From Agarophyton chilense (lineage: Eukaryota > Rhodophyta > Florideophyceae > Gracilariales > Gracilariaceae), in contig JARGXX010000088.1 in assembly GCA_030374765.1 (NCBI GenBank), forward strand, positions 2,480,001-2,544,000: a stretch of 64,000 bases of DNA, written 5' to 3'. Both the position numbers and the translations under genes were made by a program. The notes beneath the pieces are model-generated. The model was given only the letters and a program-made list of their open reading frames with translations. It had not been told where the DNA came from and made no database searches. This document shows positions 15,854 to 64,000 of the stretch, in pieces (position 1 is the first letter of the stretch; the number at the start of each line of letters is the position of its first letter).

Positions 15854-17662
15854 ATGTCAGGTAGCGGCCCATCTCGTGGCCATGGACGCGGTGGTATTAC
15901 AAAGAGGGTTACTAGCTCGAATTCGCGAAACCCTCCCAACATTGGGTTTGGCAGCATGCCTGTCCCTGCGACTCAATACTCCCCTGGGACTCTGGCTGAC
16001 CCGTTCCAACGCAGTGGTGGACTTCCTTCGACGATTCAAACCAATTGGGCTCACAATCTCGCGTTCGGTGCGGCGAACCGAACGACGAGACAGTATGAAC
16101 CTTTTGGTATTACCTTCGACCAGGTGACGAACAATGACCTGTTGAAGCACGATTGGCCTGTGGCGGTGGGTAATTATTCACTGCCGGCAGCTCTTACCAG
16201 ACCACAATTTGATACCTACTTGGGTTTGTCCCGTTGGGACTGCGAGTGCCTTCGCTCCGTTCCATTGATTTTGAAAAAATGGGACCAAGAGTTTCAACCT
16301 CGTCAGGGTCGACTGGAATGTTACCAGAGTCTGCAGCGTCATAAACCTTTGAGGTATTTTATCTGGCCGATATATCCGAGCGACTTGCCGTATGTGCGCA
16401 TCGAACCGGAGCTGTATTATTACTGCCGATTGGTGGCGCAAGTGTGCCAGTACCCGTCTATTCCGGAGACTTACCTTCCGTTTTCACCTGAATTGGTTTC
16501 CCTGAATCGGCCTTTCACCACTATCAATTGGGCTGACCGTAGTAGGTGGGGCGAGGATGCAGCGACGGAGAGTCGCGTTCGCACTCGCAACTCGTACACT
16601 CGCGTTATGCATATGCTTCATAACGTCGAGTACTTCTCACAACCTACGAACGATAGACGCGATTGGTACGTGCTTCGACCAGAGTGGTGGGAGTCCTATG
16701 AGGTTCCGGTATCACTGAGCGTGCCCACTCCGCCGGTCTTGGCGTACTTCGGGAGTCAGATTTCCCGGAACCTAGAGCGGTATTACCTCATTTGGTCGAT
16801 TGCCCTCTTGGAGTGGACCGTATTGGTTGCCATCCTGGCTCTGGAGGCCGCCCGTTACGGTATCGATTGGGATTGTCGCAATCCCGATTCTGACATATAC
16901 CAAGATGGTGTTCAACTTGTAGGTCGCATCTTCTTCATACCTCCGAGGGTTGCCCAGGATCTTTCCCGATTTGGTTACGAGAACATCGTGGAGGGGACCG
17001 ATTATACCGTGAAGGATTTGGACTCGTATCTCCAGCAGAGCAAGAATTACCATTGGGATTCCCATCAAGGTTGGGAGGCTTTCGATCCCGAAACTTCGGA
17101 GATTGTGCCTCGCCACGCCCAATACTATTACGGGGAGCCTCCTGCTTATGGAGCTCCCGCGAGCCCCGAACCTTATCATGGTACTGTGGAGACACCAGTT
17201 GGTCGTTATGCTGGTCCCTTTCCGTCCGAGCCGTTACCTCAATGTCGTAAGTCGCCTACCCCTACGGGTGTGACTCCTACTCAACCGAGCTCCTCGCGGG
17301 TTGCTGGTCCGGTTCGACCAGTGTTGGCGGGTATTGCTCGTCCTCCGCCTCAACCTATTATGGATTCTCCGGCCGTGGTCGGTTTGCTGGCTCGAATTCG
17401 CCAGGCTTGCGTCACCAACTTTCAGAGGGCTGGGCCTACCTCCGTGGTTGCTGCATTAACGCTCCTTGAAGGTTTGCTGCCGCGCCATGCGCAATACATG
17501 AAGGCGCTGAACCAACTTGGTGAGTTCCGGAATCAGTTCCAGTTGGACATGTACCAACTGGCCACCCGTCAGGTTGCCAATCTGGCGAGCGTCTCTGCTG
17601 CTGCGCCATCTGATCCTTTGACGGATCCCCTTCTAGGTGCTAACTTGAACCCTGCGGTTTAG
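15854..17662 (+). CDS. Gypsy A antisense ORF (aORF), unknown protein
   Basis: 602 codons to a TAG; the frame stays open 69 more codons to a second TAG at 17,870-17,872, and the sister element C reads Leu where A has the first TAG, so the ancestral protein was about 671 residues. It starts 13 bp from the 3' LTR and runs against gag-pol. The N-terminus is basic and Gly/Ser-rich. The middle (about 100-420) is rich in Trp, Tyr and Arg, with YVLRPEWWESYEVP, YYLIWSIALLEWTVLVAILA and RRHAQYYYGEPPAYG-like segments. Then follow a proline-rich linker and a helical C-terminal segment (VVGLLARIRQACVTNFQRAG; PRHAQYMKALNQLGEFRNQF). No known domain recognised. Homologous ORFs sit in the same place in D and E, and the C-terminal part in C. 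Confidence 0.75.
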   Translation: MSGSGPSRGHGRGGITKRVTSSNSRNPPNIGFGSMPVPATQYSPGTLADPFQRSGGLPSTIQTNWAHNLAFGAANRTTRQYEPFGITFDQVTNNDLLKHDWPVAVGNYSLPAALTRPQFDTYLGLSRWDCECLRSVPLILKKWDQEFQPRQGRLECYQSLQRHKPLRYFIWPIYPSDLPYVRIEPELYYYCRLVAQVCQYPSIPETYLPFSPELVSLNRPFTTINWADRSRWGEDAATESRVRTRNSYTRVMHMLHNVEYFSQPTNDRRDWYVLRPEWWESYEVPVSLSVPTPPVLAYFGSQISRNLERYYLIWSIALLEWTVLVAILALEAARYGIDWDCRNPDSDIYQDGVQLVGRIFFIPPRVAQDLSRFGYENIVEGTDYTVKDLDSYLQQSKNYHWDSHQGWEAFDPETSEIVPRHAQYYYGEPPAYGAPASPEPYHGTVETPVGRYAGPFPSEPLPQCRKSPTPTGVTPTQPSSSRVAGPVRPVLAGIARPPPQPIMDSPAVVGLLARIRQACVTNFQRAGPTSVVAALTLLEGLLPRHAQYMKALNQLGEFRNQFQLDMYQLATRQVANLASVSAAAPSDPLTDPLLGANLNPAV

Positions 17663-17872
17663 CAACCCGCTCCGGCGTTTCCTCCGGTTCAACCTCCGTT
17701 GATTTCGACTCCTCTCCCCAGTGGCGGGGCTACCGCTCCTTTGCTACCTCCTATGTCGATGGCTTCTAGCATTCCTGCCAGTTTTCCTTTGTGGGTAGTC
17801 AATAACACGGGTCCGCCCGATCCCCATGCTCCTCAACTGACAGGTCCTTCTACTCCCGGATTTGGGGGCTAG

Positions 17873-18107
17873 TCTTTCTGTCGCTTCACCTTTGAGGTTC
17901 TTTTGGCGGCCGCCTGCCACTTGACTTCCTTAATGTTTCCTTCTTAAAGTAAATTGTTGTCTCTTCTTGTCTCTTCTACTGTTACATTCGGTTGTTCTTT
18001 CGTGTCCTCCCTTGTAGGTAATCTGACACGCATATGCGTCCACCTTCTGAGGAAAACGACGTCTTTTCTCCCCCTTCCTTAGGCCTGAGTACCACGAAGG
18101 TCTAAGG
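17873..18107. other. Gap between convergent aORF and pol of gypsy A
   Basis: About 235 bp of pyrimidine-rich sequence between the aORF end and the chromodomain end; the counterpart in C is 59,398-59,632. It probably carries 3' processing signals for both transcripts. Confidence 0.4.
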
Positions 18108-19811
18108 TTAGGCGTCTGCAGGCATCTGCTCCTTGCGACGGCGCCAATATCTGATACGGAAGTGGGGGGGTATTGCGGCTGGGGGTTCGAGGGTGTCCCC
18201 TTCTGGCCCCCAGCCGTACCACCTTACGGTGTACTTCACACCATTGTAGGTTCGCGTGTGGCCCACCAGACGGTCAACTGGAAATACCTCTGAGGTTTGC
18301 TCCTGATCATTTGGGAGAACGCTACCTCGAGGGTTCATATGTTCCGAGTTGGGAGCTTCGTGTGTGGGAGCCGGGTGGAGAGCTCCCGCTGTTACCGTTT
18401 GAGGTTCAATTTCAGTCCCTGTTAGAGGGTTGTAATCCGGATCATCCCGTTGAAGGTCATCGTTCACCTCAATTGGGGTGGGGTCCTCCGAGGGTCGAGT
18501 GCGCAGAGCTACTGCTCTGGGCTCTCGGGCTGAGGTGCCTGCCTCAATGCGATGTTGAATCGTTTCAGGTGCTACTGTAATACGGTCAATTGGTATCGTA
18601 TTCGGTATTCCATCTTGGTCAACCCTAACGGTGTGGTCTGATGCGTTCAATACCTTATAAGGTCCCACTGATTTGGGTAGAAGCTTCGAATTGATATATT
18701 TATCAATAGCTTCATCGTCCGCTTCATAACCCGGTCGTAGTCTTTTACCTGAAGATGATTTGTCTATGTAGACATATTGTCCCGAAGATACAGAGACCAC
18801 TTTGGTTACCCTACGGTCGTAGTCGGCCTTGTACCGCTTCTGGCCTGCAGTTAGGCGGCTCTCTGCATGTTTGAGAGCCCTCCTCAACCTCACAAGGGTA
18901 TTCCGCTTGACCTGGGCAGGGTTCAGTGCGCCAGCTGCAGTGCTAGTGGTATGATCTCCCTGCACTACAATACCTGGGGGGTGTCGCAAAAGAACCAAAT
19001 CAAAGGGAGAGGTCTGCGTTGACCGGTGTACCTGAAGGTTATAGGAGTAGGTGAGCGGTTGCACCAGCTCATCCCACCCAGTTTAGTGCTCTTCCGTATA
19101 GTGTCGTAGCCTTGATACCAATGTGTGGTCAAAGCGCTCGACCCGTCCGTTTGTCTGCGGGTAATATGCAGTCGTGAAATAGTGCTCGATACCAAAGAGG
19201 TTACAGACTGCTTCGAAGAACTTCGATGCCAGGTTTGAACTATTATCGGTGAGTAGGTACAGAGGTGCCCCATACCGGTAGACGCAATTGTTGAGAAACG
19301 CGATCGACAGCGTTGTTGACTTCGTATCCTTTAAAGGTATCGCTCTAGTGAGCTTCGAGAACCTGTCGGTGATCACAAGAATGTGCTGATACCCATTCTT
19401 GGTCTTGGGAAGTATTCCTAGAAGTTTTACCGCAACAAACTCCAGCGGACCCGCTGCTGGGAGCAGCTTGAGGTATTTTCGATGCTTTCGAATACCACCT
19501 CGGGTACGAACACAAGATTCGCATTGACCTACAAAGGTATAGACATCATGGGCCATATGAGGCCAATAGAACCGTTATCTCAAGGTGTAATACATTCTGG
19601 TGGCACCGAGGTATCCCGATAGTCGCGCGTAGTGCGCGAGATACAAGACTCTCGGGCGAAGCGCATTCGGAACCATCTTTTGAAGGCTACCATCCAAGGT
19701 TGACCTTCTCACGATATACCTATTGTGGTTCACATCGTATTGTGATCCTTTGAAACCAATTTGGTCAGCCAGGGTTCGGCAGTACGCTATTGAGCCTCCT
19801 GTAGTCCACAC
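18108..19811 (-). pseudogene. pol: Gypsy A integrase and chromodomain
   Basis: Continuous frame with three stops (about 19,575, 19,083 and the true end at 18,108). The integrase zinc-binding region shows VLYLAHYARLSGYLGATR and CESCVRTRGG; the first catalytic Asp is replaced (EFVAVKLLGILP, where C has FVAIDLLGPLP); the second is kept (YLLTDNSSN); the Glu is in VERFDHTLV. C-terminal to it is a basic linker (LVRLRRALKHAESRLTAGQK) and a chromodomain-like end, KYTVRWYGWGPEGDTLEPP. Chromodomains steer integration to particular chromatin. The element cannot integrate by itself. Confidence 0.85.
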
Positions 19812-21099: not shown

Positions 21100-23153
21100 T
21101 ACGCCAACCGTTCGGTGTTTTCCACCTGTACGGGAGGGGTTGAGTCGAAGTTTGGTGTTTCATCGATGGTATTGACCTGTACCGGTGTACGGGGTTGGAA
21201 CCTATTTGGTGCTTGCGTTGAAGACCCATAGAGGCGTTGGTGATTCTGCATGCGAGCCTGAATCAACTGGTCTCTCATTCCTGGAGGTAAGTTAGCGCTA
21301 TTGTTTGCCAAATGGTCTGTCGCGAGACAGAACCAGCAAACGAGGCCTCCAGTTTGGGGGTCTCGCGTTACCATTGAGGGGGGCTTCGAAACCTGGTTGG
21401 TTGGAGCAGCGGCATAGGATGTGGGTGGCGAGTTATGGGAGCTCGCTCCCTGCATCCTCTGCGAGCTCATCGCACTTGGCGGCGATTATACCGAGTTTGG
21501 TGTACGCGTTGACGACCAATTTCCTACCGTTGAGGGTTTCGAGAACCGCCCCTGGGTCGCTACCAAGTGGATAGCGGTTCCTGTAGGTACTTCAATGTGC
21601 GAGAAACACACTGAGGTTGTGTTTTCTTCAATTTCCAAGACTGACCTTTTTGATTTATCCTTCGAGGTTAGAGGCACGGCTGGTCTCTTTCCCAGCCGAA
21701 TGATATCTCCAAGGCCCTGGGAGTATCGAGCCAGCCCATTTCAGTCTACCTTTCGGTTAGTGGCCAGGTAATTGCGTACCTGGGAACGGATCGCTGTGTC
21801 GACATTGTTGGCAAAAAGCGACTTTAACATAGAGGTAGTGAACAAATTACCACAATAGGTTGCCAGATTCCAAAGGGCGAGCGAAAACCCCGATTCGGTT
21901 TGCCCAGACCTTTCATGTCAAGCGAGGACTTCCGAGTAAGCCTCTTGGATAACCTCATCAGTGGCGTATGTTTCCAAAAGGAAATTGACCACTTCTGGGT
22001 ATGACTCCAACATCTCTGTGCCATCCTCATCCATCGCTAAGGTATTGCCGCGGAGCCTACCCTGAAGCAAGTATTATGCTTGTTCTTTCAGAAAGACCTG
22101 AAATAGCCACATTGCAGCGCCCTCGGAAAAACTATTTTGGTCACATGCAAGCTTGAACTTCTGTAGAAACTCAATCAACGCAATAGGATCCGTACCTGTG
22201 AAGGTTGTGTCACCCATTTGGAAGCTGAGCTTCTTGTGGTGCTTAGTAATCTTCTAAGAAACCTCTTGGGTGTATTCAGACGACTTGTTGATCAACCGAT
22301 AAGTCCTGTAATCAACCGCTTTGGTGAACATATCGTTCAACGGTTGGTGCACCTCCAGGTCCATTTCGGTGTCCGACTCAGAGTCGGGCGACTCAATGTA
22401 TCGCTTTTTGCCCTTTCGGGTCTTTTTCGACGACTTCTTCGACGACCTGTTGGGTTTCTTCTTCTTCTTACCTTTACGGTCATCATCCGACGATGAACTC
22501 GTATCGGAAATGGAGTCTGACGAGTCGGGGTCTGAACAATCCTCTCGATTCTTTCCCCTCTTCGGCCTCCGCTTCTTCCCTTTTCGGTTTCTTCGTCGCT
22601 CATCCAACGAGTCAGACGAATCGTCCTTGGGACCACCTCCATGGGTATCCTTTAGAACGAAACCAGTAATTGATGGCAGATAAATGTCTTGAGGATCTAC
22701 CTTCCCCGGGACCTCTTGACTCTGCCTTGGACCTTGTAGGTACTCACTTTCAGTAGGTAAGTGTTTGGAATGGGTGGAATGACCCATTTGGAACCCTTGT
22801 GGTCTGCACTTTGCGATGTCCACCTGTGTAGGTCGGGATTCTGCGAATCCCTCGGAAACCCAAAGGTCCTGCACAGCGCGGTAAACATGCTCTTTAGCAT
22901 CTGTAAAGAGATACTGTTTCACCATTTCAGGTATCCTTTCCGACAGCTCTTGAGCTGCTCGGTCAACCACAATACGGGTAAATGCATCGACGTCCATTGA
23001 GGGCGGAACCATCCGGGTGTCCGAATTTTCCTTTAAGATTAATTCATCCTCGACCGCGAGGGTGACGAGCGCTTTCGCTCGCTCTTCGAGCTGAGGCCAA
23101 AGCTCCTCCGCCGCAACCTCAATTGGTAATTCCCTTTGAGGTTCCGTTGCCAT
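21099..23153 (-). pseudogene. gag: Gypsy A gag
   Basis: A single reading frame broken only by stop codons (near 22,254, 22,078, 21,940, 21,751 and 21,483). The N-terminal 100 residues are acidic and helical (MATEPQRELPIEVAAEELWP onward); the next section has alternating Lys/Arg-rich and Ser/Asp-rich tracts; then a capsid-like region; and near the end a CCHC-type knuckle CWFCLATDHLANNS whose last Cys is Ser. The stop overlaps the pol ATG by one base. Confidence 0.75.
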
Positions 23154-23435
23154 CGGCGGCGGACCATGTACCTTTACGGTTTTGTCCCGAGGGTGCCAGA
23201 GCAGCTCCCCGGGATTTTCCAGAATCCTTTGAGCCGATGGGGATCCTTTAGGACCTTAATGGCTTGGCGGGGAGCTCGCACCACGCGTATTCCTTTCAGG
23301 TCGTTCCATTTGTGACCAATAGTGGTGTCCTGTATTGCTTTGCGGGATTTCCTGAAACCAAATAGGTGTACGAGCGTCCAATCCTTCTTGGAATCTCGTG
23401 AGAACCGTGAAGGTACGACGAAACCTAGCAAAACT

Positions 23436-23453: not shown

Positions 23454-23456
23454 AAA

Positions 23457-24090
23457 GGTCGTAGAATCACCTCTGGGGTATGCTACTGTCTTGTCTCGGT
23501 AGCGTAGTGACGCTCAACCGTAGGGAGCGTGTTGACGCTCAACCTTAGAAGGTAGACGTAATAAACCTCGATGGTAAAAGGGAACCGTGAAAACCCGCAG
23601 GGGCAAACGGCGGGGCGACTAGCCTATACCGTGTAGGTGAACGATGGTAGGCGTCGACGCGCGGGAAAACCAGTGTGGTAGTTGAGAAACGATGAACCAA
23701 AAGGTATAGTCGTGACCCAAGTGGTGCCTGTCTTTATCAAAATAGAATGGGGGAGGTGCAGTTCCCTATATGGAGTGGACTGCACTCTCCAGATCACTCG
23801 GGAGGTGCCAGCAAGGCACTGTCTCTGACCTAGTGTCAGAGACCAGGTCAGCACTGGCTACAGTGCCAGGAGGCCACTCCACTACTGTACTAAAATACAA
23901 ATAGTTACAATTACTATCACTAACAATTACTCAACCAGAAGGTACATGTCAACACTACACGTGGCTGACAACACTTAAATGGTAGCTCGCCCGGAGCTGC
24001 ATGGCCGATGACTCCTCGCATCCATCACCTACAAGGTAGGTGTAGTATATTGACAACCTCAAAGGTCAAACCTTCTGCCACCATACGACA
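23457..24090 (-). repeat. Gypsy A 5' LTR (634 bp)
   Basis: On the minus strand it begins TGTCGTATGGTGGCAGAAGG and ends TCTACGACC; other family members end TACGACA, giving 7-bp inverted ends TGTCGTA/TACGACA. It is similar over its full length to the solo LTR at 24,851-25,484 in the opposite orientation, and to the C 3' LTR at 60,701. Confidence 0.88.
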
Positions 24091-24850
24091 CACAACTCTA
24101 GAGCAATCAAAAATGGAAAAATAGCTCTAACCTGTTCAAATCCCACTATCGCGAAGAAGGGTTCCTCAGCGATCGAAACGTCGAGCCACCGATGTGTGGT
24201 GGTAAGACCACAGTGGTTCAGGCAGTACCTACGATGGTGATAAACCCAGGAAAACGGGAAGGAATCAAAAGGGGATCCAAGGACAAGGATATTCCGCGGA
24301 CAACGGCAAAGTATAGGGCGAAAATGTAGGTCGAAATAGGACGCACGACGAAACGTACAGACCTATGAAAGGGGTATCCACATTGGATTAGCGAAATAAT
24401 GACGGGTAAAAACAACCCTATACAGAGGCGGTGTACTGACCTAAACATAGGAAAACCAACAAAAGAAAGAAACACACCAATAACGATGGTACAGTGACGC
24501 CTGAGCTTCCCGAGGGGATAGATTAGCCAAACCGGTCGCTGTTCCTCCCGTTAAGAGATGGAGACTCGCGTAGGTGACATAATTTAGAGCCAAGCACTCG
24601 GTTACCATTTACTTGGTGGTAGCGAAGGCGGTAAAGCCATCGCTAAAGTCTATTCTAGACAGTGAACTACACGTGTAGACTATAGTAGTGGAAATCAATC
24701 CTGGTCCATACAGGTATCATGCGTGTAACCCCAGCCTTGCACATCCATCCGTCCACTACGGTGCTACTGTAGAGACTTAACTAACATACCTTCTAAGGTG
24801 TCTAAAATACTAAAAACTAATTGTACTCATAAATGACGTGACGTGGTCCC
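24091..24850 (+). other. Copia leader fragment between two inverted LTRs
   Basis: 760 bp beginning CACAAC, the expected end of the copia 5' LTR. No ORF of note and no recognised domain. It is bounded by head-to-head gypsy-family LTRs. Confidence 0.5.
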
Positions 24851-25484
24851 TGTCCTATAGTGGCAGAAGGTCTGACCTTTGAGGTTGTCAATATACTACA
24901 CTGACCCTGTAGGTGATGGATGCAAAAAGTCATCGGCCATGCAGCTCCGGGCGAGCTACCATCTAGGTGTTGTCAGCCACGTGTGGTGTTGACATGTACC
25001 TTCTGGTTGAGTAATTGTTAGTGATAGTAATTGTAATTATGTGTATTTTAGTACAGTAGTGGAGTGGCCACCTGGCACTGTAGCCAGTGCTGACCAGGTC
25101 TCTGACACTAGGTCAGAGACCGTGTCTTGCTGGCACCCCCCGGGTGATCTGGAGAGTGCAGTCCACTGCATATAGGGAACTGCACCTCCCCCATTCTAAT
25201 TTGATAAAGACAGGCACCACTTGGGTCACGACTATACCTTTTGGTTTTTGGTTTCTCAACTACCACACAGGCTTTCCCGCGCGTCGACGCCTACCATCGT
25301 TTACCTACACGGTACAGGCTAGTCGCCCCGCCGTTTGCCCCTGCGGGTTTTCACGGTTCCCTGTTACCATCGAGGTTTACTACGTCTACCTTCTAAGGTT
25401 GAGAGTCAACACGCTCCCTACGGTTGAGCGTCACAACGCTCCCGAGACAAGACAGTAGCATACCCCAGAGGTGATTCTACGACA
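24851..25484 (+). repeat. Solo LTR of the A/C gypsy family with intact target duplication
   Basis: 634 bp, starts TGTCCTATAG and ends TCTACGACA. It is flanked on both sides by GTCCC (24,846-24,850 and 25,485-25,489), so it is a complete insertion reduced to one LTR by recombination. No gypsy internal sequence adjoins it. Confidence 0.92.
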
Positions 25485-25489
25485 GTCCC

Positions 25490-28296: not shown

Positions 28297-28399
28297 TGAG
28301 GAACTCTCCTATGCGTGGATTTTTGAACAAAATTGGAGAAGTTCCCCAAGGCTCCGAGCATAAAATCCAACCACAGTTAAAAAAGCAAGTTTAAATGTT

Positions 28400-45081: not shown

Positions 45082-45098
45082 GGAAGCAGATAACCAGT

Positions 45099-48533: not shown

Positions 48534-49199
48534 TGTAGTAATCTACTATGTCGGGGAATCCGATTGGTTGGTTTTTCGCGAAGTCACGGTTGGAACTCAT
48601 AAGTGAGTGATGTAATCAAACTTGTGATATGAAACGGCACACCGCGTAGGATGCCAGGAGGCAGGGTACAGTGTTGGGACACGTGGTATCACGAGTGGAG
48701 TGGCTTGCAACGGCGCATGTAGTGGCGATCCACGTGGCAGGTTTTACTACCCTTTGTAGCTAAACGTCCATTAGGGACCATACCCATACAGTGGTTTGGC
48801 TAAGTGGCTGAACACTGCGTATTATTTACGTAATATTTGGGCACTCACCCTGGCACACAGTATGTAGTGTATCAGAGGTGAGCGCCGAGTCCAAGTAAAG
48901 GAGACAACATGGGCATCATGACTATTCTGTTCCTCGCTTAGGATTCCTTAACCGGAGATCCGGACGAGCTATAATAGATAGTCAGCCCCCAACCACTTCA
49001 CGAGCCGTCTCGTACCTACGTTCCATCAACGTTTTACAGTTGCACTGTTCACCCTCGCTGGCGAGTAGTGGCCTTGCACCCCACTTCCAGCTCGCTGGTG
49101 TTGTAGCTCTACCACTCCTTTTCCTTCGCCGCAAGCGACCCATCGGCAGTCCGAACGCTGTCGCAGGTGTCTGCTCTCTCCGTTAGAGCGGATACTACA
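48534..49199 (+). repeat. Gypsy D 5' LTR (666 bp)
   Basis: Starts TGTAGTAATC and ends GATACTACA, with 7-bp inverted ends TGTAGTA/TACTACA. Just inside, 49,200 onward reads AGTAATCTCGCGACTTAGAA, a primer-like site resembling that of A. Confidence 0.93.
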
Positions 49200-49414
49200 A
49201 GTAATCTCGCGACTTAGAACCACTGTGGTCAGCTGCACTGAACAATTCGTTCCTGGAACGTGGAATCGATATCGATACTTGGAAGAAGTGGAATCACTAC
49301 AGTTATTGTTTATCGAACCACCTCCAAAAATTGCGGAATTCATCGTGGTTGAACTCGTGGTCGAGAAGTCGAAGACACCATTTGGTTCGCACATAGACTC
49401 AGGTTTGGTCAAGG

Positions 49415-51396: not shown

Positions 51397-51665
51397 AGGA
51401 GCCGCGTACCGGCGGGCAAGTATTGGAAAGCCAAAAGTTGTTTTTCTCAGACACAAATGCGCCGGACGGACAAGACGGTTGCTCAGAATGCTGAAGTGTT
51501 ACAACCCGGAACCCCGGTAGGAAGAGGCGCCTTTGAGGCGAAGCAGCCGGTGCAACCGGAAAACTAAGTGAGGGAGCCCCTAGGGGGTCGGCACTGGTCG
51601 ATCACGTAGTGCTGACCACGGAGAGCTCGCCTCCCTGCTCCCGCGCTTAGAAGCCCAAGATTCTC

Positions 51666-53999
51666 TTGAGGCCTCAGAAATTTCCGCCGTATGGAATCAA
51701 TCCGCCGGACGGAAAGCGAGTACAGTTTGACTGTGAGTTAAATCATCCTTGGAGACGTTATACTTGTCCGTCAAAACGGGAAAGTTACCTCATGGTGGTG
51801 TCTAAAGGAAACTATAAGGTCTATGCCGACATCGGCTCTGACAGGAATCTGTTATCTCGTCGATTGACTATCCTGGACACAGGTGCTGGTCCGAACTTTA
51901 TACGGGAATCGGAGCTCGCTTCAGCTGACTTAGAACGTATTCGCTACGGTCCTTTACCGGACATCTGGGATGCCAACAAAAATGCTGTGAAGACACTGGG
52001 AACAGTTCGACTCGTGGTGCGTTTGGGACGCTTTGTAGTCTTAGTCTTCTTCATCGTCTGTAAGACGTTAGCTGCACCAGTGGTACTGGGATGTGATTAT
52101 TGCAACAAGTTTGTCGAAGCCATTCGCCCGCGAAGAAAACTAGTGGAACTAGATGATGGATCAATGGTACCAATTGTTCGCAAGCCAATGCGTCGTTTTC
52201 CCGAAGCACCTCCACTTCCACCATCTATGGAATACGGGAAATCCCGAGGACGTGTCTCGCCGAGGATTAGAGTAGCGAAGAGTGCCATGCTGAAGGCGCA
52301 AACCCAAACTTGGGTTCAAGTAAGAACATAACGACACGGACTCGTGGTATTTCAACCGAATACTCGTATGTACGAATCCCGTGGATTGGTAGTCGCTAAC
52401 GGCATTGTTCAGGTTGATCCTGGTAGCCCCTTTTGGATACTAGTGAGTAACTTCACCGATAACGATTATCAGATACCGAAGAATCAGGTTGTTGCAACAG
52501 CTTTGCCTCATCCCACAGTGGTGGTCCCTACTCATGTTTCTACTGCAGAAGTATTGGGATTAACCCATGTCGGTGACACAGACGAAGAACTGCAAACTCC
52601 GTCTGGAGATCAATTGCAATCGGCAAAGGATCCAGAGAGCCTGGTCGATGAGCTAGACTTAGCACATGTGTCGGAACCCTACAGAACGAAGATCAGGTCT
52701 ATGCTAAAGAATTACACATCCATGTGGAGTGGAAAACTAGGAGAGATCTCAGCTACGAAACACCACATTGATTTGGTCCCAGGGTCACGACCCATCTTCC
52801 AACCACCCTACAGAGCGGGACCGCGAACTCGCCAAATCGAGGAGGAGAATGTCAGCAAAATGCTGGAAGAAGGAGTAATCGAAGCAGATCAATCTGCTCG
52901 GGCCTCACCAGTGGTGCTGGTTCCGAAACCTGATGGTTCTTTACGAATCTGTATCGATTATCGAAAACTGAACGCAGTTACAGTTCGGGATACATACCCG
53001 TTGCCTCGAATGGACGAATGTATTGACAGCTTAGGAGAAGCAAACGTGTTCACCACGTTGGACGCCAACTCTGGCTAATGGAAGGTGCCTGTAGCGGAAG
53101 AAGACCAAGATAAAACCGCATTTGCGTGTCACGCTGGCCTCTACCGTTTCAAAAGGATGCCCTTTGGCTTAACGAATGCACCGGCTACTTTCCAGCGTAC
53201 TCTGGACATCTTACTCTCAAGATACAAGTGGAAGACTTGTTTAGTCTATTTGGACGATGTGATCATCTTTTCCCAGGATGTGGAAAGCCATTTACGGCAT
53301 GTCGAGGAGATCCTCAAAGCACTGCAGAGCACAGGTATCACCTTGAAGCTCAAGAAATGCGAATGGTTCTCTGGCACCGTCCGGTACTTAGGACATGTGA
53401 TCAAGCCGGGACAGCTTGCCATTCAAGAGGCACAAACAGCGGCTCTCCGCGAAGTACAACCTCCGTCGACACAGAAGCAATTGCGTTCTTTCCTGTGCTT
53501 GTGCAACGTCTACCGACAATTCGTGCCGCGATACTCGAATATAGCGGCACCGCTCAACGCAAAGCTGCGTAAAGGGCAACCAGTACAGCTTCAACAATTC
53601 AGACAAGCTGAAGTGGAAGCGTTCGACAGGCTGAAGACAAAGATTATTACAGCCCCAGTCTTGGTGCTACCCACCCCCAACCTGCCATACTCAGTGGAAA
53701 CCTACTCCATCGAGTACCAAGTAGGGTGTGCCCTTTTTCAAACACACCCTGATGGTGAACGCAAACCCATTGGTTACTGGTCAAGATCGCTGAACGCAGC
53801 TGAGAAGAAGTATTCAGTTTCAGAAAAGGAATGTCTTGCAGTCTTTTGGGCTCTAACCACATTGCGACCGTATCTCCAAGGAGAACGTCTTACCGTCAAC
53901 ACGGATCATTCGTCTCTACGATGGATACTGTCCATCACAGACCCGTCTGGTCGTCTCACACGATGGCGCTTACGACTTTCTGAATTCGATTTCAAGTGA
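51666..53999 (+). pseudogene. pol: Gypsy D protease, reverse transcriptase and RNase H
   Basis: Protease: RRLTILDTGAGPNFIRE and VVLGCDYCNKFVEAI. Stop at 52,329-52,331. RT: HHIDLVPGSRPIFQPPYR, ICIDYRKLNAVTVRD, LDANSG then TAA where C has Tyr (53,076-53,078), MPFGLTNAPATFQRTL, and YLDD intact at 53,247-53,258. RNase H: the first active Asp is changed (YSVETYSIEYQ against YTLDTDASHAQ in C), with EKECLAVFWAL and NTDHSSLRW. A one-base loss at about 53,996 shifts the frame. Confidence 0.88.
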
Positions 54000-55658
54000 A
54001 GTATAAGAAGGGATTGGCCAATGTCCGAGCTGACGCGCTATCGCGACTCAAAACACTGGGTGAAACCCAAGGCGAAATCGATGAGGAGATACCTTGCTTC
54101 TACATGGAGACCCATTCACCATCTTTTGAAGGAGAGGAACAAGAGACTATTGATGATTATTCGGATGCAGACCCGTTCCTTGCATTAGCAGACACTGACC
54201 CTTCAGTTCAACTCGAGCGAATCTCGTGCACTGAGCTCCTCAATGAGCAACACGCCGATACGTTTTGTGTGTCGATACGCTCTCGTCTTAACGGGGGGGA
54301 GGAGCTCCCCTTTTCACTCGATTCACGAGGAATACTATTAAGACATATCGAAAAGCATGATCAAATCGTGATTCCACACGTCTTGACGAGTACTCCATCT
54401 GGCACACTACAGCAGGCTGTCTGGTCCTCCAGGAGGAACGAAGTTGTTCATGACTCTAAGAAGACGTTTTTACTGGCCTACTTTGGCAATGGACTGCCAT
54501 GCTACAGTGAGGTCGTGTACAACATGTGCGAAGAATCGCGTGAAGCTTTACAGGAAGCGGAAACCGATGAAGTTATTCCAGGCGAAAGCGCCTTTACAAT
54601 ACGTCAGTATCGACATCCTAGGGGAATTGATTCGCTCAAGGCGAGGTTATCGCTACCTATTGGTAATCACCGACCGCTTCTCGAAGCTATTGCGGACTGT
54701 GCCGCTGAAGCGGATAACCGCAACCGTAATCGCACAGGCGTTTATCAAACACTGGGTATTTATATACGGACCACCAGAAGTTCTGTTATCAGATAATGGA
54801 AAGCAATTCGTTGCGAAGTTCTTTCAGAATGTTTGCAGCATTATGGGCATTCGAAACGTGTTCACCACGACCTATCATCCGAAATGCAACGGTCAGGTGG
54901 AGCGTTTCAACCGCACGCTGATAGCAGCATTACGACACTACATCGCGGACCACCCGAAAGAATGGGACATGTTTACAGATACTCTGTGCTACGCGTACAA
55001 TACGCAAGTGCATGCCTCTACAAAGACGGCACCGTTCGACCTCGACCTCTCAGGTAACCCTCCGGCTTTACCGGTTGCGCTCGACGACGAGACAGAATTG
55101 GACGCGCCAACCACGGCTAATTACCATCTGAAATGGAGGAATGACCTGAAGGCCAGAGCGGAAGAAGCCGCTAAGGAGTTATCAAAGACGCAAGCTCGCT
55201 ATAAGCGAAACTATGACGCCAGAAGGCGAAGAGGAAATCCGGCAATCGGAGTAGGAGGTCACGTCTTCGTGTGAGTTGACAGACCGGACAAACAGGGAGA
55301 ATCTCGTCATAAGTTGTTGCCGATAGCGGCTGGACCCTTCAAAGTGGTGGACATTGATGAAGACACAGCGGTCATCAAGACAGGTGAGGACGTTGAACGA
55401 GTATCGCGCGAACGCGTTGAAGTCGTGCCTGACCCGCAAGTGGAAGTCCAGGTATCTGGTAGAACTAAGGAGGCAAGTGCGACGGAACGTCAATGCAAAA
55501 GCCCAAGTGACTCTGGGGATATTGAACCGCCACCAATGGCTCGAGAGGAGGAAAAAGCTCCTGATCTCCCACCGCCGGCGGTTGCGTACGCCAATCACGG
55601 ACAACTTCCGAAGTATCTGGATATGCCCCGTGGCATGCGCACACCCGTAAGTACATAA
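53996..55658 (+). pseudogene. pol: Gypsy D RNase H tail and integrase
   Basis: The RNase H end, YKKGLANVRADALSRL, is in the shifted frame; the frame returns near 54,440. Integrase: CTTCAKNR zinc region, VSIDILGEL (first Asp), LLSDNGKQFVAKFF (second Asp), CNGQVERFNRTL (Glu), so the D,D,E triad is intact. The SH3-like tail is KLLPIAAGPFKVVDIDED, after a stop at about 55,274. A Pro/Glu-rich linker follows. Confidence 0.85.
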
Positions 55659-55995
55659 ATAGAACCTGAAAGCAGAAAAAGTTGTTTTGGAATTTGGCCC
55701 AAAGGACTTGGAAACGAGTGCACGCGAAAACGCGCCTTTGCCGCTTCAGGCTGAACCGTCAGATGAAGCGCCAGTCGCTGTTCCGCCGATATCGGCTCCC
55801 ATCCCTCGTGGGCAGGAAGAAGAAGAGGTATCGCCTCCTGTCGTGGCGCAAGCACCATCATCCACCTAACAGCGGTCAGAATCGGATAAACCGAAGGAAG
55901 TTCATCCACGAATGGAATTGAGAAGTAGCAAGAAGTACGCTTCTATGGAACCTGGAAAACAGGATAGCTCGTTATCTGAGAAAGGTTCTTAAGGA

Positions 55996-56382
55996 ATGAG
56001 TACACTGCCCCTGCGGGCAGAACGACAGTTAGTCGACGAGCGAACGCTTAACGACGCAGAGACTGATAACACAGAGACGCTTGGGTCAGCCCTAAGGCAT
56101 TTCAAACCTCTTAACAGGAATCTAGCTCAAACAGCGAAAGCATTGGGAAACGCCCAGGAATATGTTGTGGATCGCATATGTGAACATGGCGATCATGAAG
56201 ATACCAGAGAGTTACTGTATCGAGTCCGTTGGTACGGTTTTCCTCCGGAAGCGAATACGTGGGAACCTATAGCTCATATCCCCCGTTCGCAGCTCGTGCG
56301 ATATCATCGACGCATGCGAATACCACTTCCCAGGGAGATCGACTCCTCGATATTCGTGCTCATGGGCACATCCCATTTCTAA
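55996..56382 (+). CDS. pol: Gypsy D chromodomain segment
   Basis: This segment is in a different frame from the integrase. QEYVVDRICEHGDHEDTREL then YRVRWYGFPPEANTWEPIAH is a clear chromodomain (aromatic and Trp-Glu-Pro positions present), ending LVRYHRRMRIPLP. In chromoviruses this C-terminal integrase module binds histone marks or heterochromatin proteins. Confidence 0.85.
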   Translation: MSTLPLRAERQLVDERTLNDAETDNTETLGSALRHFKPLNRNLAQTAKALGNAQEYVVDRICEHGDHEDTRELLYRVRWYGFPPEANTWEPIAHIPRSQLVRYHRRMRIPLPREIDSSIFVLMGTSHF

Positions 56383-56404
56383 ATATGAGCTACAAAGGTA
56401 GTAA

Positions 56405-56640
56405 AAACTCGAAAGGCGAGAAGAAAACAAGAAGTCATGAAGAAGAAACGTGAAAACACGCAAGCACATGACACTTACTGATTATCATCAAGGACAAACT
56501 CGAGAAGCGAGAAGAAGGATTGAAGAACTCGAGAAGCGATAAGAGATAATTGATAAACTCGAGAAGCGAGAAGGGAAGTATGAAACTCGAGAAGCGAGAA
56601 GAAGAAGTTAAGAACTCGAGAAGCGAGAAGAGATGAAGAC
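56405..56640. repeat. Six CTCGAGAAGCGAG hairpin units between convergent genes of D
   Basis: Copies of AACTCGAGAAGCGAGAAG, some with a base changed, occur at about 56,406, 56,497, 56,526, 56,553, 56,582 and 56,613, the last five spaced 27-31 bp apart. Each unit can fold as CTCG-AGAAG-CGAG. They lie between the chromodomain stop and the antisense ORF stop. Confidence 0.85.
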
Positions 56641-56741
56641 TAGAAGATAAGAAGGGAACGTGAAGACACGAAGTCACCGGAGTTTTATTGGTCTCAAGAT
56701 ACCACCGCAAGGGTGTTGACTAGGAGTCTTTTCTAGGATCA

Positions 56742-58568
56742 TTAAAGAGACGTGCGAGCACGCAGGTTCGCAAGAAGCTGTGCGCAATCACCCTCAACTT
56801 GGTCTATGGGAAAGCCCGCGTCTAAGGGGAACTGCCTCAGCGGATCCGAGCCTAGATCTTCGACCGGCACTGCACTCGGTTGTTGGGTAAACCCATGACA
56901 GTACTCTTGAGCAACTCCCGCCGCTGCGCATTGATCGACGGAAGTCGCTACGCCTGCCAGCTCTGGCTCGTCCTCGTAACCGAGTTCAGCCTCAGCTCCC
57001 GGCGCTTCCTCATTCGGTTCCTCTCCATTCTCGGATGGAGTAGCATCGTACACGTATCCAGTAAGCTGGTTCGGTGGCATTTCACGCGGGTTCTCCCGAA
57101 GAAAGCGAGCCTGCTCGGAGGTGATCAACTGGCGCGTCCAGGGGTCGTACCAAACGAAATCTCCAGCACTTGCCGTTCGTCCAGGAGAATGGTCGTAGTG
57201 TCTTGCACGGGTTCCGCGAGCGGATTGATCAGCTGACACTCCAGACCAATCTATACTGTCGATCAAGTCCACAAGATGGAGGAAGTCGGCATGGTTCTCA
57301 CCGGATCCCAGGACAAGAGAAAGATCGAGTTCTCTCGCATACTTTCGCGCTGTGGGCGACATGTACCAAACTCTAAAGGTATCATAAGCATCCCACAGGA
57401 GGAAGACCGCCATCTTGGCCATAAACTCGGTATAAACCACCGTCCAATATCCCGAGAACGGGTCGTTAACCAACGCGGACCCGATGTAGGAGATCGCCGG
57501 TGGGAGCTCCACAGGGCAACCACGAGGACTCTCGATCGCCTCCCAATTCTCCGTAATACCGATGTAGCGCCCGAAGCGCGCGTTCCGCCGGATGCGGTCA
57601 ATCTCGATCATTTGATACGGCACCAAATAGCCCAAACGTGATCGAGTACGACGTTTCCAACGAGGATAATCCCAATAGGGAATGTCACGCATTCGAAGGA
57701 AGCGGAACTCCGCACGGAGAAGAGTTTGCTGAAAGCAGAGAGCTGCATCACGCACACCGCGCACACCGCGCCAACCGCTAACATCGACTTCAACGAGTAT
57801 CTCGATATTCGAGTAACCTTCACCGTCGGTACGGGCTTTCCAGGTATCTAGTTCCCAGTCCTGCGGGAGGAGAACCGTACTGATGAATCGGTGAAGACGC
57901 TGGTAAATCAGCTTGGTGAACCGCGTACGGGCTTCGGACAAGGTTTCCGTTGAATATCGCGCAATCGCGTTGTCTGGCAAAGCAGTATGGCTCGCTCAGT
58001 CGTCGCTATAAATCGCGTGTTCCGGAATACCGTCAGGGAAGTACCCACCGTGTACATACTGTTGTATCAACGCGTCATCGCGGATAGAAACTCGATCAAA
58101 CCAGGGCGCTTGCGCGAAATGTTCAACGTTGTCGAGAGGATCTCGTCCATAGAAATCCGCAGGGTGCGGGTAGCTCCGCTGAGCACGACGAGAAGGAGCT
58201 CGAATCACAGCTGCAGAGGCGACGTAAGCTGCGTTCGGCATCGGAGCCACGGTTGGCCGAGGTAACGGTACCGACCGGAATCCGATGTACGGGGTGGGGA
58301 ACGAACGGTATGGACCGAGTTGAGCAGTAGGCTGCGACGCAGAACCAGCAGTGTTTGACGGAGTTCCAGAAGGCACATCCTCAGAGGAGGGCTGAAACGG
58401 GTTGGACCCGGCGTTCGGATCCATCGCGAGAGATCGAGCTGAAGTGCGGTGAGGAACAGAATGCTGTTGAGAACTGTAAGAGTTGGTCGTGCGGCGAGGA
58501 ATTCGTGATGACGATGAGTACCCGGAACACCGGTCCGACTTCGTATAAACGCTTCTTGCGTCCCCCAT
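56742..58568 (-). pseudogene. Gypsy D antisense ORF (aORF), unknown protein
   Basis: One frame of about 608 codons from 58,568 to 56,742, interrupted by a single TGA at about 57,996. It starts 24 bp inside the 3' LTR and runs against pol. The N-terminus is Ser/Pro-rich; then APWFDRVSIRDDALIQQYVH and GGYFPDGIP; then RTRSRLGYLVPYQMIEIDRI, RRNARFGRYIGITENWEAIE, SPRGCPVELPPAISYIGS and FLLWDAYDTFRVWYMSP; and an acidic tail ending in a short helix. Element E aligns with it over most of this length. No known fold recognised; no signal peptide or clear membrane span. Confidence 0.8.
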
Positions 58569-58582
58569 GGTTCGCGCTTAAC

Positions 58583-58592
58583 GAGGGGGGTA
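58583..58592 (+). other. Polypurine tract of gypsy D
   Basis: GAGGGGGGTA lies immediately before the 3' LTR start TGTAGTATTC, the expected position and composition of the plus-strand primer. Confidence 0.8.
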
Positions 58593-59259
58593 TGTAGTAT
58601 TCTACTATGTCGGGGAATCCGATATGATGATTTTTCGCGAAGTCGCGGTTGGAACTCATAAGTGAGTGATGTCATCAAACTTGTGATATGAAACGGCACA
58701 CCGCGTAGAATGCCAGGAGGCACGGTACATTAGTGGAACACTTGGTATCACAAGTGGACTGGCTTGCAACGGCGCATGTAGTGGCGATCCACGTGGCAGG
58801 TTTTACTACCCTTTGTAGCTAGACGTCCATTAGGGACTATACCCAAACAGTGGTTTGGCTAACTGGCTGACCACTGGGTATTATTTATATATTTATTTGG
58901 GCACTCACCCTGGCACACAGTATATAGTGTACCAGAGGTGAGCGCCGACTCCAAGTAAAGGAGACAACAAGGGCATCATGACTATTCTGTTCCTCGCTTA
59001 GGATTCCTTAACCGGAGATCCGGACGAGCTATAATAGATAGTCAGCCCCCAACCACTTCACGAGCCGTCTCGTACCTACGTTCTATCAACGTTTTACAGT
59101 TGCACTGTTCACCCTCGCTGGCGAGTAGTGGCCTTACACCCCACTTCCAGCTCGCTGGTGTTGTAGCTCTACCACCTCTTTTCCTTCGCCGCAAGCGACC
59201 CATCGGCAGTCCGAACGCTGTCGCAGGTGTCTGCTCTCTCCGTTAGAGTGGATACTACA
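58593..59259 (+). repeat. Gypsy D 3' LTR (667 bp)
   Basis: Starts TGTAGTATTC, ends GATACTACA, and aligns over its full length with 48,534-49,199. It is followed by the duplicated target AATTG. Confidence 0.93.
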
Positions 59260-59632
59260 AATTGTCTGAAGTACACCGTAAGGTGGTACGGCTGGGGGCC
59301 AGAAGGGGACACCCTCGAACCCCCAGCCGCAATGCCCCCACAATTCCGTATCAGGTATTGGCGCCGTCGCAAGGAGCAGATGCCTGCAGACGCCTAACCT
59401 TAGACGTTCGTGGTACTCAGGCCTAAGGAAGGGGGAGAAAAGACGTCGTTTTCCGCAGAAGGTGGACGCATATGCGTGTCAGATTACCTACAAGGGAGGA
59501 CACGAAAGAGCAACCGAATGTAACAGTAGAAGAGACAAGAAGAAACAACAATTTACTTTAAGAAGGAAACATTAAGGAAGTCAAGTGGCAGGTGGCCGCC
59601 ACAAGAACCTCAAAGGTGAAGCGACAGAAAGA

Positions 59633-60295
59633 CTAGCCCCCAAATCCGGGAGTAGAAGGACCTGTCGGTTGAGGAGCATTGGGATCTGGAGGACCCGTGT
59701 TATTGAATACCCACGAAGGAAAACTGGCCGAAATGCTAGGAGCCACTGACATAGGAGGTAGCGAAGGAGCGGTAGCCCCGCCACTGGAGAGAGGAGTCTA
59801 AACCAACAGAGGTTGAACAGGAGGAAACGCCGGAGCGTGTTGTAAAACCGCAGGGTTCAAGTTAGCACCTAAAAGGGGATCCGTCAAAGGATCAGATGGC
59901 GCAGCAGCAGAGACGCTCGCCAGATTGGCAACCTGACGGGTGGCCAGTTGGTACATGTCCAACTGGAACTGATTCCAGAACTCACCAAGTTGGTTCAGCG
60001 CCTTCATGTATTGCGCATGGCGCGGCAGCAAACCTTCAAGGAGCATTAATGCAGAAACCATGGAGGTAGGCCCAGCCCTCTGAAAGTTGGTGACGCAACC
60101 CTGACGAATTCGAGCCAGCAAACCGACCACGGCCGGAGAATCCATAATAGGGTGAGGCAGAGGACGAGAAATACCCGCCAACAGAGGTCGAACCGGACCA
60201 GCAACCCGCGGGGAGCTCGGTTGAGTAGGAGTCACACCCGTAGGGGTAGCCGACTTATGACTTTGAGGTAACGGCTCGGACGGGAAGGGACCAGG
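59633..60295 (-). pseudogene. Gypsy C antisense ORF remnant (C-terminal part)
   Basis: Closely similar to residues of about 457 onward of the A aORF (VVGLLARIRQGCVTNFQRAG; LEGLLPRHAQYMKALNQLGE), continuing to the shared end STPGFGG. It has a TAG at 59,798 where A reads Ser, and Leu where A has its own TAG, so neither stop is ancestral. Similarity to A ends at about 60,295; the N-terminal two thirds are missing. Confidence 0.8.
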
Positions 60296-60700
60296 CGGGA
60301 CGGCGCGCGCAGGGACCTAAAAGGGAAATGAAGTTTGAGCAACCGGGAAAGGTGCGATACAAACTTGGTTAATCAGTGGGCTATGCGGAGGCAGAATCGC
60401 AAGCAAGCAAGGCCACTACCGAAAAGGTGTCCGCGAGTGCACTATTGACACTGAATCGTACTCATGACAGTCCCTACCTGAATGGTTGTCGCTCAATTCG
60501 TTTGCCGCCGTCGTTGCTCGCACTCCCCAACCGACACTGGCACCGAGTTCTGAACCTCAAGGGATCGCGGGTCGCGCACCGTGACCAGCCGCCGACGGAC
60601 AACACTCCGATGCCCGCACCGCTGTCGCTCGCTATACCTTTATGGTTTGATGGAAGGAGACATGGGGCGTGTCTCACGGATAGGAGGTAGAAAGGGGGTC
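60296..60700. other. Unique segment of gypsy C upstream of its 3' LTR
   Basis: No similarity to the corresponding part of A was seen. GC-rich; a 67-codon minus ORF at 60,677-60,474 might be an aORF start, but nothing supports it. The polypurine tract is at the right end. Confidence 0.4.
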
Positions 60701-61146
60701 TGTCGTATAGTGGCAGAAGGTTTGACCTTTGAGGTTGTCGATATACTACACTAACCTTGTAGGGGATGGATTCGAGGAATCATCGGCCATGCAGCTCCGG
60801 CCGAGCTACCATCTAGGTGTCTTCAGCCACGTGTACTGTTGACATATACCTTCTGGTTGAGTAATTGTTAGTAATAGTAATTGTAATTATATATGTATTT
60901 TAGTACAGTAGTTGAGTGGCCACCTGGCACTGTACCCAGTGTTGGCCAGGTCTCTTACACTAGGTCAGAGACCGTGCCTTGCTCGCACCTCCCGGGTGAT
61001 CTGGAGAGTGCAGTCCACTGCATATAGGAAACTGCAGCTCCCTCATCCTTATCTGATAAAGGCAGGCATCACTTGGGTCACGGCTATACCTTTTGGTTTA
61101 TTGTTTCTCAACTCCCACAAAGGCTTTCCCGCGCGTCGACGCCTAC
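60701..61146 (+). repeat. Gypsy C 3' LTR, truncated by element E
   Basis: Begins TGTCGTATAGTGGCAGAAGG and matches the solo LTR from 24,851 for about 446 bp, to GCGTCGACGCCTAC, where E starts. The remaining 190 bp should lie beyond the window on the far side of E. Confidence 0.88.
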
Positions 61147-62069: not shown

Positions 62070-62148
62070 TCTCCCCCTCCTTAAGACGAGGAAGAACATT
62101 CCGAGCCGCGGGTGTCTAACTTTCTGATCACTATACATACTTCCCCCA

Positions 62149-64000
62149 ATGGGGTCCTTCACCACTTCTGAGGATCGCCACAAAACCGGCACATCGGTAC
62201 AACTTTCTTCTACTCCTCCGACTTTCGGCGATAAGCAACTTCTCGCAACAGCTGTCTCAACCAGCCTTCTTAAGGGAATGAACCCATACGTCATCAACCC
62301 AATCTCGGGGCCGTCGGCCTCCGCGCCGGCGGACAACGAAGCTCCCCAGCAGGGTGGATATTTCTCCGGTTTTGATGCGGCTCCGTCGGGTACCGAACCT
62401 TCCGCCTCGGCGAGCAACCGACATCCTCAGGAGGATTTGGACATTAACACGGTGGCGTGGAACTCCGCTCATGCGATGCTCTTGGTAGCAAACTCCAGAG
62501 GTTGGATCTCAAACGAATCCTTTCGAAGGTAGAGTCCCCTTACCGATCCGGTGATGTATTCCCGCGCTCCGTGGTTCCATCCGACAGCGGTTCGCGACGA
62601 TGAGCTCATCGACTCCTACGTGGAGGACGGCTTATTTCCGGGTGGCCTACCTATCGAAGTTGTACGTTCTCCCGATTGGAGGGCGCGGGTAGCCATAGAG
62701 CCTCAGTATCTATACCGCGGTCGCGGGGAGTCCCTGGACAAGGCGCGTGCAGCGATGGCGGCTCTGGCCTACCAGCGATTGGAGAGGTCACGTTTTGACC
62801 ATCTGGTTCCCCCGGAGTACGGGTTCGATGTCGCCTATTACCGCACGTACAGTAAGGTCTCCTACGGGGATAACCTGGCAGCCTTTCCCGAAGCCGAGTT
62901 CCGCGGACCGGGTTTTCCTCTCCGAGAAGATATGCTCCAATGGAGTCGTCCCATCCTTCGGGCTGAATTCAGGTACCTTCAACGGCAGTTTACCAAGTAT
63001 GAGTTCGATCGACGCGTGCGCTTCGAGCGCCGCTCGCGCTCCCGTTTCGGGTTCCTTGTCCCGTATCCTCACGTGGAACTGGAGCGTATCCGTAACACGG
63101 CGAAGGTTGGGCGATTCGTGCCCCTTCCAGCTTGGTGGAGTAAGGTCGAGGTCCCCCGAGGGTGCTTTGGTGAACTGCCCCGTGCATCTACTATATCGGG
63201 TCTCGTTTGATGCACGACCCGAACTCGGGATACTGGGCCCTCGTTGCAGCCGAGTGGGCAGCCCGCGTAGCGGCGCACCTCCTCTGGGATGCTTATGACC
63301 ATTTCCGTATCTGGTATATTCCTCCGATGCTACGGACCATCATGCGTCAGATCGACCTTGTCCCAGCGTTGGGTTCGGTCAGCAACGTGCAGGACCTGTA
63401 TCCAGTCTTGGACGTGATCGACAACACCCAATGGGATCGACTTCCAGTGGGAAATCAGCCCGCAGGGGAAGGATCCGCTCGAGACAAGTCTCCTGGCCGG
63501 TACGATCCGGGCTCCGGTAACTGGGTCTATTACAATCCCTTCGAAGGGGTTCGCATCAGCGCGGCGCAAGCACGGGCGCTGATGGACCCGCCTCGACCGA
63601 TGCCGGTGGGACACCCGACGGGGTTCATTTATACCGACGATTACGAGTACGGGCCTCCAGTAGACCTGGACGATCCAGCGTTGGATAACGACACGCCAGC
63701 TCCTAGTGGAGTACTCCCTGTGGAGCCATCTGCACCCTTCCAACCAGTGGGAACGACCTCAGCTGCGGCGGCGAATGCATCCGGTGGCGGTTCATCTGCT
63801 CCCCCCGGGTGGGGTGTGAACACCCTTGCGCAGGCGCCGGTTGCCACTCCGCAAGCGGATAGTGTGCGACAAGGCCTCGTGAACGCGGGCATTCCGATTC
63901 CCCCGGGTATGACGGATGTGAACCAGATGTTGGCTTTCGCCTCGGCGTACCATCAGAGTCAGAATCCCAACGGTGGGGCGGGTCCCTCCTCGGGCTTTCC
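62149..64000 (+). pseudogene. Gypsy E antisense ORF (aORF), partial
   Basis: It starts 80 bp from the LTR. A TAG at about 62,530 and a frame change near 63,185 break it; the last 270 codons are open to the window edge. It is related to the D aORF: APWFHPTAVRDDELIDSYVE, RSRSRFGFLVPYPHVELERI, RNTAKVGRFVPLPAWWSKVE, VPRGCFGELP, NSGYWALVAAEWAARVAAHL and LLWDAYDHFRIWYIPP. The tail is rich in Pro, Ala and Gly. Function unknown. Confidence 0.75.

What the first reader, a model, noticed from the sequence alone, without database searches (positions are those of the whole stretch)
15854..64000. Conserved long antisense gene (aORF) in three gypsy chromovirus families
Elements A (15,854-17,662), D (58,568-56,742), E (62,149 onward) and, in part, C (60,295-59,633) each carry a 600-670-codon ORF on the strand opposite gag-pol, between the chromodomain and the 3' LTR. 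D and E share ordered motifs (APWF...RDDALI, LVPY..IEIDRIR, RGC..ELP, LLWDAYD.FR.WY). A has the same layout with weaker similarity in a Trp/Tyr-rich core (WWESYEVP; LLEWTVLVAILALEAARYG). The pol genes and LTRs of A/C and D are quite different, so a retained ORF argues for function. Antisense ORFs in this position are known in some plant Ty3/gypsy lineages, but I recognise no homologue or domain here. It could be an antisense regulator, accessory structural protein or silencing suppressor; that is speculation.
Basis: partly seen in the sequence, partly recalled or inferred. Interest (0 to 1): 0.88.

Follow-up and report, generated by a model that had tools for sequence, protein, structure and literature searches.

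The report
Conserved antisense gene in algal retrotransposons
Three families of jumping genes in what is probably a red alga carry, on the strand opposite their usual genes, related versions of one protein gene of unknown fold, whose protein has been kept between two of the families while silent DNA sites have scrambled.

Summary
A (with C), D and E are Ty3/gypsy elements with chromodomain matches and a long gene on the opposite strand between pol and the 3' LTR. Only A is open in the window, and it is shortened at both ends; D and E are broken there but open in some other copies. C is a deleted A copy into which D inserted. The proteins are homologous: D–E 36% identity, E 9e-83; A fits a profile of the others at 30.4 bits, best of 500 shuffles 3.6. 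Between D and E third codon positions match at chance while the protein is kept: long-term selection on the protein. Within families the signal is weak. The gene was found in 11 of 12 pol-anchored E copies sampled, but in place in only 7 of 20 A-type ones. Nine of 14 homologues are labelled Agarophyton chilense. No known domain or fold was found. Antisense genes in this position are known in plants and a fungus; this family was not found in the papers searched. Most likely: an accessory protein gene acting in trans.

The parts
15854..17662 (+). Antisense gene of element A, open frame of 602 codons; shorter at both ends than in some or most other A copies
15641..15853 (+). Leader-side stretch of the A antisense unit, matched in 20 of 20 fetched A copies; homology to the window copy ends at 15620-15643 (deletion junction in the window copy)
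15304..15644 (-). Remaining part of the 3' LTR of element A (90.6% to its 5' LTR)
18108..19082 (-). Element A frame with integrase C-terminal part and a chromodomain match (below Pfam's cut-off), convergent with the antisense gene; about 445 bp between them in the window
23465..24093 (-). 5' LTR of element A
48534..49200 (+). 5' LTR of element D
54387..55274 (+). Element D integrase frame
56742..58568 (-). Antisense gene of element D, broken in this copy (one in-frame stop)
58593..59260 (+). 3' LTR of element D (94.8% to 5' LTR)
59845..60294 (-). Remnant (last ~150 codons as counted on window A) of the antisense gene of element C, an A-family copy
60282..61146 (.). LTR-proximal leader stretch and part of the 3' LTR of element C
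62149..64000 (+). Antisense gene of element E, broken in this copy (one stop, one frame break); runs to the window's end

Best explanation
An accessory protein gene, present before the families A, D and E split, lies in opposite orientation between pol and the 3' LTR. SHOWN: homologous proteins in the same place in three families; protein conservation between D and E with third positions at chance; retention beside pol in 11 of 12 sampled E copies; copies that have lost it or part of it, some of them multiplied. INFERRED: it is transcribed from an antisense start in or near the 3' LTR, converges with pol over a spacer of roughly 250-450 bp, and is translated into a soluble protein with a mainly helical core of about 380 residues between flexible tails. 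INFERRED: the protein is shared among copies (acts in trans), because deleted derivatives still spread; its likeliest job is a regulatory or ribonucleoprotein factor in the element's life cycle. SPECULATIVE: nuclear site and nucleic-acid binding.
For: BLASTP D-E 36% over 474 aa, E 9e-83; A-E 6e-10; A to the profile of eight non-A proteins 30.4 bits, best of 500 locally shuffled A sequences 3.6. D-E codon positions 1/2/3 identical 0.546/0.612/0.280, chance 0.266 at position 3; four-fold sites at identical residues 0.292, n=48; all 30 codon shuffles exceeded for protein identity and positions 1 and 2. Integrase identities fall in the same order: D-E 59-60%, C-E 45%, C-D 46-49%, as expected of joint descent. 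E: 11 of 12 sampled pol-anchored copies hold the gene, two of them with the same internal deletion. 14 homologues in a capped protein search, five without a species name. No strongly hydrophobic stretch in seven of eight proteins; core helical in the model. 10 of 20 sampled A-type pol copies have the LTR already in the gene's place.
Against: No transcript or protein evidence. Within families constraint is weaker than on pol (odds 0.71, p 0.12, against 0.37, p 0.0002), and variants present in two copies include stops at the neutral rate. The codon-position test is uninformative for A (real values within or below the shuffled range). Half of the A-type pol copies sampled lack the gene in place, so it may be dispensable rather than shared. 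No domain or fold supports any biochemical role.
Confidence: 0.55

Rival explanations
1. A structural or particle protein (second capsid-like or envelope-like protein) made from an antisense message.
For: Size of 600 residues or more, Trp/Tyr/Phe content of 8-14% and an ordered core.
Against: An antisense message is an odd source for a protein needed in bulk (inference).
Confidence: 0.15
2. The antisense RNA is what matters (self-restraint or silencing control through double-stranded RNA), and the protein is secondary.
For: Convergent layout would give overlapping transcripts by read-through; review PMC7264820 raises this for plant elements (passages read).
Against: An RNA role does not require protein similarity to outlast silent sites between D and E, nor a collinear protein in A.
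Confidence: 0.12
3. A silencing suppressor or host-defence antagonist.
For: Faster change than integrase between D and E (39% against 59% identity) and weak within-family constraint fit an arms race.
Against: No direct evidence; fast change has other causes; no related protein of known function found by sequence or fold.
Confidence: 0.12
4. A captured host gene or a nested transposon carried as a passenger.
For: Loss in many A copies.
Against: The places listed in two own-genome protein searches (107 and 70 scored of 1485 and 1569 candidates) look, by identity, like the E and D families, though they were not inspected one by one; same position in three families with parallel descent. Inner element ends were not looked for.
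Confidence: 0.06

Closest known systems
Retand-lineage antisense ORFs with the Transposase_28 (TRP28, PF04195) domain, flowering plants (PMC11963269, abstract and passages read)
   Same: Ty3/gypsy element; long ORF antisense to gag-pol between pol and 3' LTR; [quoted passage not shown] function unknown
   Different: Retand is a non-chromovirus lineage of flowering plants; PF04195 was not matched by any of 12 family members here at E<=10, where HMMER's filters already drop most matches above about 0.1
Grande gene23 / RIRE2 / PvRetro13 antisense aORFs (review PMC7264820, abstract and passages read)
   Same: Position and orientation; own antisense promoter reported for Grande; nuclear location reported for GENE23
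   Different: Flowering-plant elements; no sequences compared here
Boty of Botrytis cinerea with antisense gene brtn (known from passages and reference list of PMC7264820, and a search listing; original paper not read)
   Same: Antisense gene between pol and 3' LTR of an LTR element outside plants
   Different: Fungal; sequence not compared here
HBZ of HTLV-1 (name and role recalled; antisense HTLV genes and an antisense promoter in the 3' LTR are mentioned in the passages)
   Same: Protein gene on the antisense strand of a retroelement
   Different: Complex retrovirus; no sequence relation tested; an antisense start in the LTR here is only a hint from public gene models

Membership tests
Chromoviruses (Ty3/gypsy with chromodomain) | Integrase followed by a chromodomain at the end of pol | tested here: met
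   Integrase core and chromodomain in one frame of a D copy (26.5 bits, cut-off 25.1) and of an E copy (18.2 bits, below cut-off); chromodomain match in A below cut-off (17.9 bits)
Chromoviruses (Ty3/gypsy with chromodomain) | Placement by reverse-transcriptase phylogeny | not tested
   No tree was built
LTR elements with antisense aORF between pol and 3' LTR (aORF-3R) | Long ORF opposite gag-pol between pol and 3' LTR | tested here: met
   (E's own LTR was not mapped)
LTR elements with antisense aORF between pol and 3' LTR (aORF-3R) | Antisense transcription | not testable with these tools
   No RNA data; only two unnamed gene models that begin in the LTR
Retand TRP28 proteins | PF04195 domain | tested here: not met
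   0 of 12 members of A5 match at E<=10, filters on
Envelope-like proteins of LTR elements | Membrane-spanning segment(s) | tested here: not met
   Maximum 19-residue hydropathy 0.89-1.33 in seven of eight proteins; 2.28 in A only

The most novel reading that the evidence does not exclude
A chromovirus lineage of red algae independently evolved an HBZ-like arrangement: a trans-acting regulatory protein of a new fold, made from a spliced message that starts in the antisense direction in the 3' LTR, on which deleted elements depend as parasites.
Probability: 0.25. Interest if true: 0.82.

Novelty: new variant of a known kind. Interest (0 to 1): 0.6.

Why it matters
Antisense genes of LTR retrotransposons are a small, unexplained class described in the papers seen here mainly from flowering plants and a fungus. 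A separate, conserved protein family in chromodomain elements of a (probable) red alga would show that such genes arise and are kept more than once. One 80-Mb genome offers many copies (167, 407 and 502 candidate places for A, D and E, 40 scored each), open and deleted, in which the question of what antisense genes do can be studied.

Tried and rejected
Within-family selection by shared versus single-copy variants: too little power, weak result, reported as such. Codon-position test for A: no better than codon shuffles, so A's homology rests. Domain and fold look-ups: Pfam, PHROG, NCBIfam, PDB by sequence and profile gave nothing or weak, inconsistent matches to the antisense proteins, rejected. 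Two structure models: no Foldseek match with E<=0.001, no VIA match; the second model was not compared with the viral library. Two IMG/VR scans found no relative. An envelope reading was rejected on hydropathy. Splice sites of a public gene model were looked at: donor GT in five of five copies shown, but the model leaves out part of the conserved core, so it is only a lead. My first count of two stops in window D was an alignment artefact, mended. Papers: nine searches answered listed no report of antisense ORFs in red algal retrotransposons; subscription journals are largely missing from that library.
Full report
WHAT IS THERE. The window (positions 2,480,001–2,544,000 of a contig in a 79.8-Mb, 135-contig genome) holds three kinds of Ty3/gypsy element that concern this finding. 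Element A runs on the minus strand (gag-like frame 22254–23255, frame with a chromodomain match ending at 18108), with an open frame of 602 codons on the plus strand at 15854–17662. Element D runs on the plus strand with LTRs 48534–49200 and 58593–59260 (94.8% alike) and an antisense gene 58568–56742. Element E enters at the right edge with its antisense gene from 62149 on; in the E copies L018 and L024 a frame with the chromodomain motif (by eye; Pfam match in L021) lies about 400 bp beyond the gene's end, on the opposite strand. Element C is an A-family copy (pol 93%, tail 95%) into which D has inserted; it keeps about the last 150 codons of the gene.

CORRECTIONS. D and E are broken in the window: one in-frame stop in D (one search's second stop is an alignment artefact), one stop and one frame break in E. 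Elsewhere, 10 of 20 E copies, 2 of 20 D copies and 3 of 21 A copies (window included) had neither stop nor indel against the reference gene (an A copy aligned over only a third of the gene is not counted; the reference copies count themselves; copies were chosen as the best DNA matches, so this is not a random sample). The window's A is also an altered copy. At its start, 20 of 20 fetched A copies match it only from 15620–15643 upwards; in 6 of the 7 read further out about 1.15 kb separates the LTR edge from the window's start codon, while the seventh did not show the LTR. In 3 of those 7 the frame continues about 175 codons upstream, though in one of them it stops just after the window's start. 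At its end, the window's frame closes earlier than in all 19 other copies that could be anchored, by 64 codons in 13 of them. One copy (L031, the same place as L008) is open over 839 codons, so the full A protein may be about 750–820 residues (inference). In D and E the gene's end agrees among copies, but for two D copies with one more codon (17 of 19 anchored D, 8 of 8 E). In D and E the likely start is an internal methionine (position 49 and 44), because P0004 and three of the Agarophyton chilense gene models begin at that point.

ARE THE THREE PROTEINS RELATED? D and E: 36% over 474 residues, E 9e-83. E and A: 24% over 255 columns, 6e-10. D and A: 5e-5. A profile of eight non-A proteins scores A at 30.4 bits; the best of 500 locally shuffled versions of A reached 3.6. 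In all frame-by-frame comparisons the antisense frame pair scores highest (230, 40 and 32 bits; next best 87, 26 and 22); the D–E pairs at 87 and 61 bits are shadow frames on the other strand, which mirror the same conservation.

IS IT UNDER SELECTION? Between D and E, 361 aligned core codons agree at positions 1, 2 and 3 in 54.6%, 61.2% and 28.0%; composition alone predicts 26.6% at position 3; at 48 identical four-fold residues the third base agrees in 29.2%. Silent sites are thus saturated and the protein is not. A control with codon-shuffled partners shows how much the aligner inflates such numbers: for D–E protein identity (0.393), position 1 (0.545) and position 2 (0.612) exceed all 30 shuffles (maxima 0.319, 0.519 and 0.539), but for A–E and A–D the real values do not, so the codon test says nothing for A. 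Within families most variation looks like neutral decay after insertion. Variants shared by three or more copies have an amino-acid-to-silent ratio 0.71 times that of single-copy variants (p 0.12; A 0.58, D 0.68, E 1.25), against 0.37 (p 0.0002) for pol pieces from the A and D loci. Stops are 0 of 100 shared and 67 of 1602 single variants (p 0.03); but variants in exactly two copies include 11 stops of 259, the neutral rate, and pol has 1 of 65 shared and 43 of 1119 single.

IS IT A FIXED PART OF THE ELEMENTS? Searching by pol rather than by the gene: for E, 16 of 40 scored pol hits have a listed gene hit on the expected side (only 121 gene places, at least one of them a D copy, were listed, so a lower bound). 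Of 12 others sampled directly 11 hold the gene, two of them with the same internal deletion, and one matched nothing; the remaining 12 of 40 were not examined. For A, of 20 sampled pol copies 7 have the gene in place, 10 have the LTR there already, 1 shows the gene's end displaced, 1 has E sequence there and 1 matched nothing. These 20 are from the first 23 of 40 scored hits; the three left out are the window's and two known to have the gene, and the last 17 were not examined. D was not sampled this way. By my reckoning, window C has about the same pol-to-LTR distance as the short copies. Deleted derivatives have multiplied, which fits a protein shared between copies, or a dispensable one.

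WHERE ELSE? Three searches of 5.8 billion proteins, each scoring only about 8,000 candidates, gave 14 homologues, P0004–P0017: nine labelled Agarophyton chilense, five without a species name. P0011, full-length and unnamed, is 34% identical to the E core. None was found in two IMG/VR scans. The host as a red alga is an inference from these labels; the genome itself is unnamed.

WHAT KIND OF PROTEIN? Across 12 aligned proteins the aligner reports nine invariant positions (W177, R232, E236, L243, F274, R297, E310, E334, G351 of E). In eight proteins arginine is 7–14% and lysine 0.7–2.2% of residues; only A has a strongly hydrophobic stretch. The full E model has mean pLDDT 58 with disordered ends; the core model has 72.9, pTM 0.66, mostly helices. 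No significant match in solved structures for either, nor for the full model among viral models. With moderate models this does not prove a new fold.

HOW IT PROBABLY WORKS. Best supported is an accessory protein gene transcribed against gag-pol from in or near the 3' LTR. A hint: two A. chilense gene models begin inside the LTR in this orientation (P0005 for A, P0009 for D). These are predictions and P0005 omits part of the conserved core. The role as a trans-acting regulatory or ribonucleoprotein factor is inference by analogy with plant antisense genes, reported nuclear for Grande (PMC7264820, passages) and predicted DNA-binding for Retand (PMC11963269, abstract and passages).

KNOWN OR NEW? 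The position and orientation are a known kind; the protein family, its occurrence in chromodomain elements and in a probable red alga were not found in nine literature searches, of which listings and the passages named were seen. PF04195, the Retand hallmark, was not matched. Hence: new variant of a known kind.

Noticed in passing
window 48534-59260 within 45098-61146: Element D is nested in element C; C's pol resumes at about 59255 after the D insertion.
   Followed up: yes
window 24851-25483: A second A-type LTR in inverted orientation, 95% complementary to the A 5' LTR and 760 bp from it.
   Followed up: no
L100 and L105 (201 bp each): Two E copies share the same internal deletion inside the antisense gene, suggesting an amplified deleted sublineage.
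   Followed up: partly
L021 against L018-L020: This E copy has a much shorter stretch between integrase and antisense gene than other E copies (pol query bases 449-589 matched in none of the 39 other listed places).
   Followed up: partly
L045-L064, inside the D antisense gene: A 271-codon frame on the gag-pol strand overlaps the D gene and stays open in many D copies; probably a shadow of the antisense codons.
   Followed up: partly
L002-L008, about 526-560 and 1285: A possible antisense leader intron (GT in the five copies shown, AG before 1290 in six of seven) matching a public gene model that starts in the LTR.
   Followed up: partly
window 29184-29978 (+): Frame that looks like a piece of a copia-type element (by eye, not tested).
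   Followed up: no
window 13076-14122 (-): 348-codon frame that looks like a drug/metabolite-type membrane transporter, probably a host gene (by eye, not tested).
   Followed up: no
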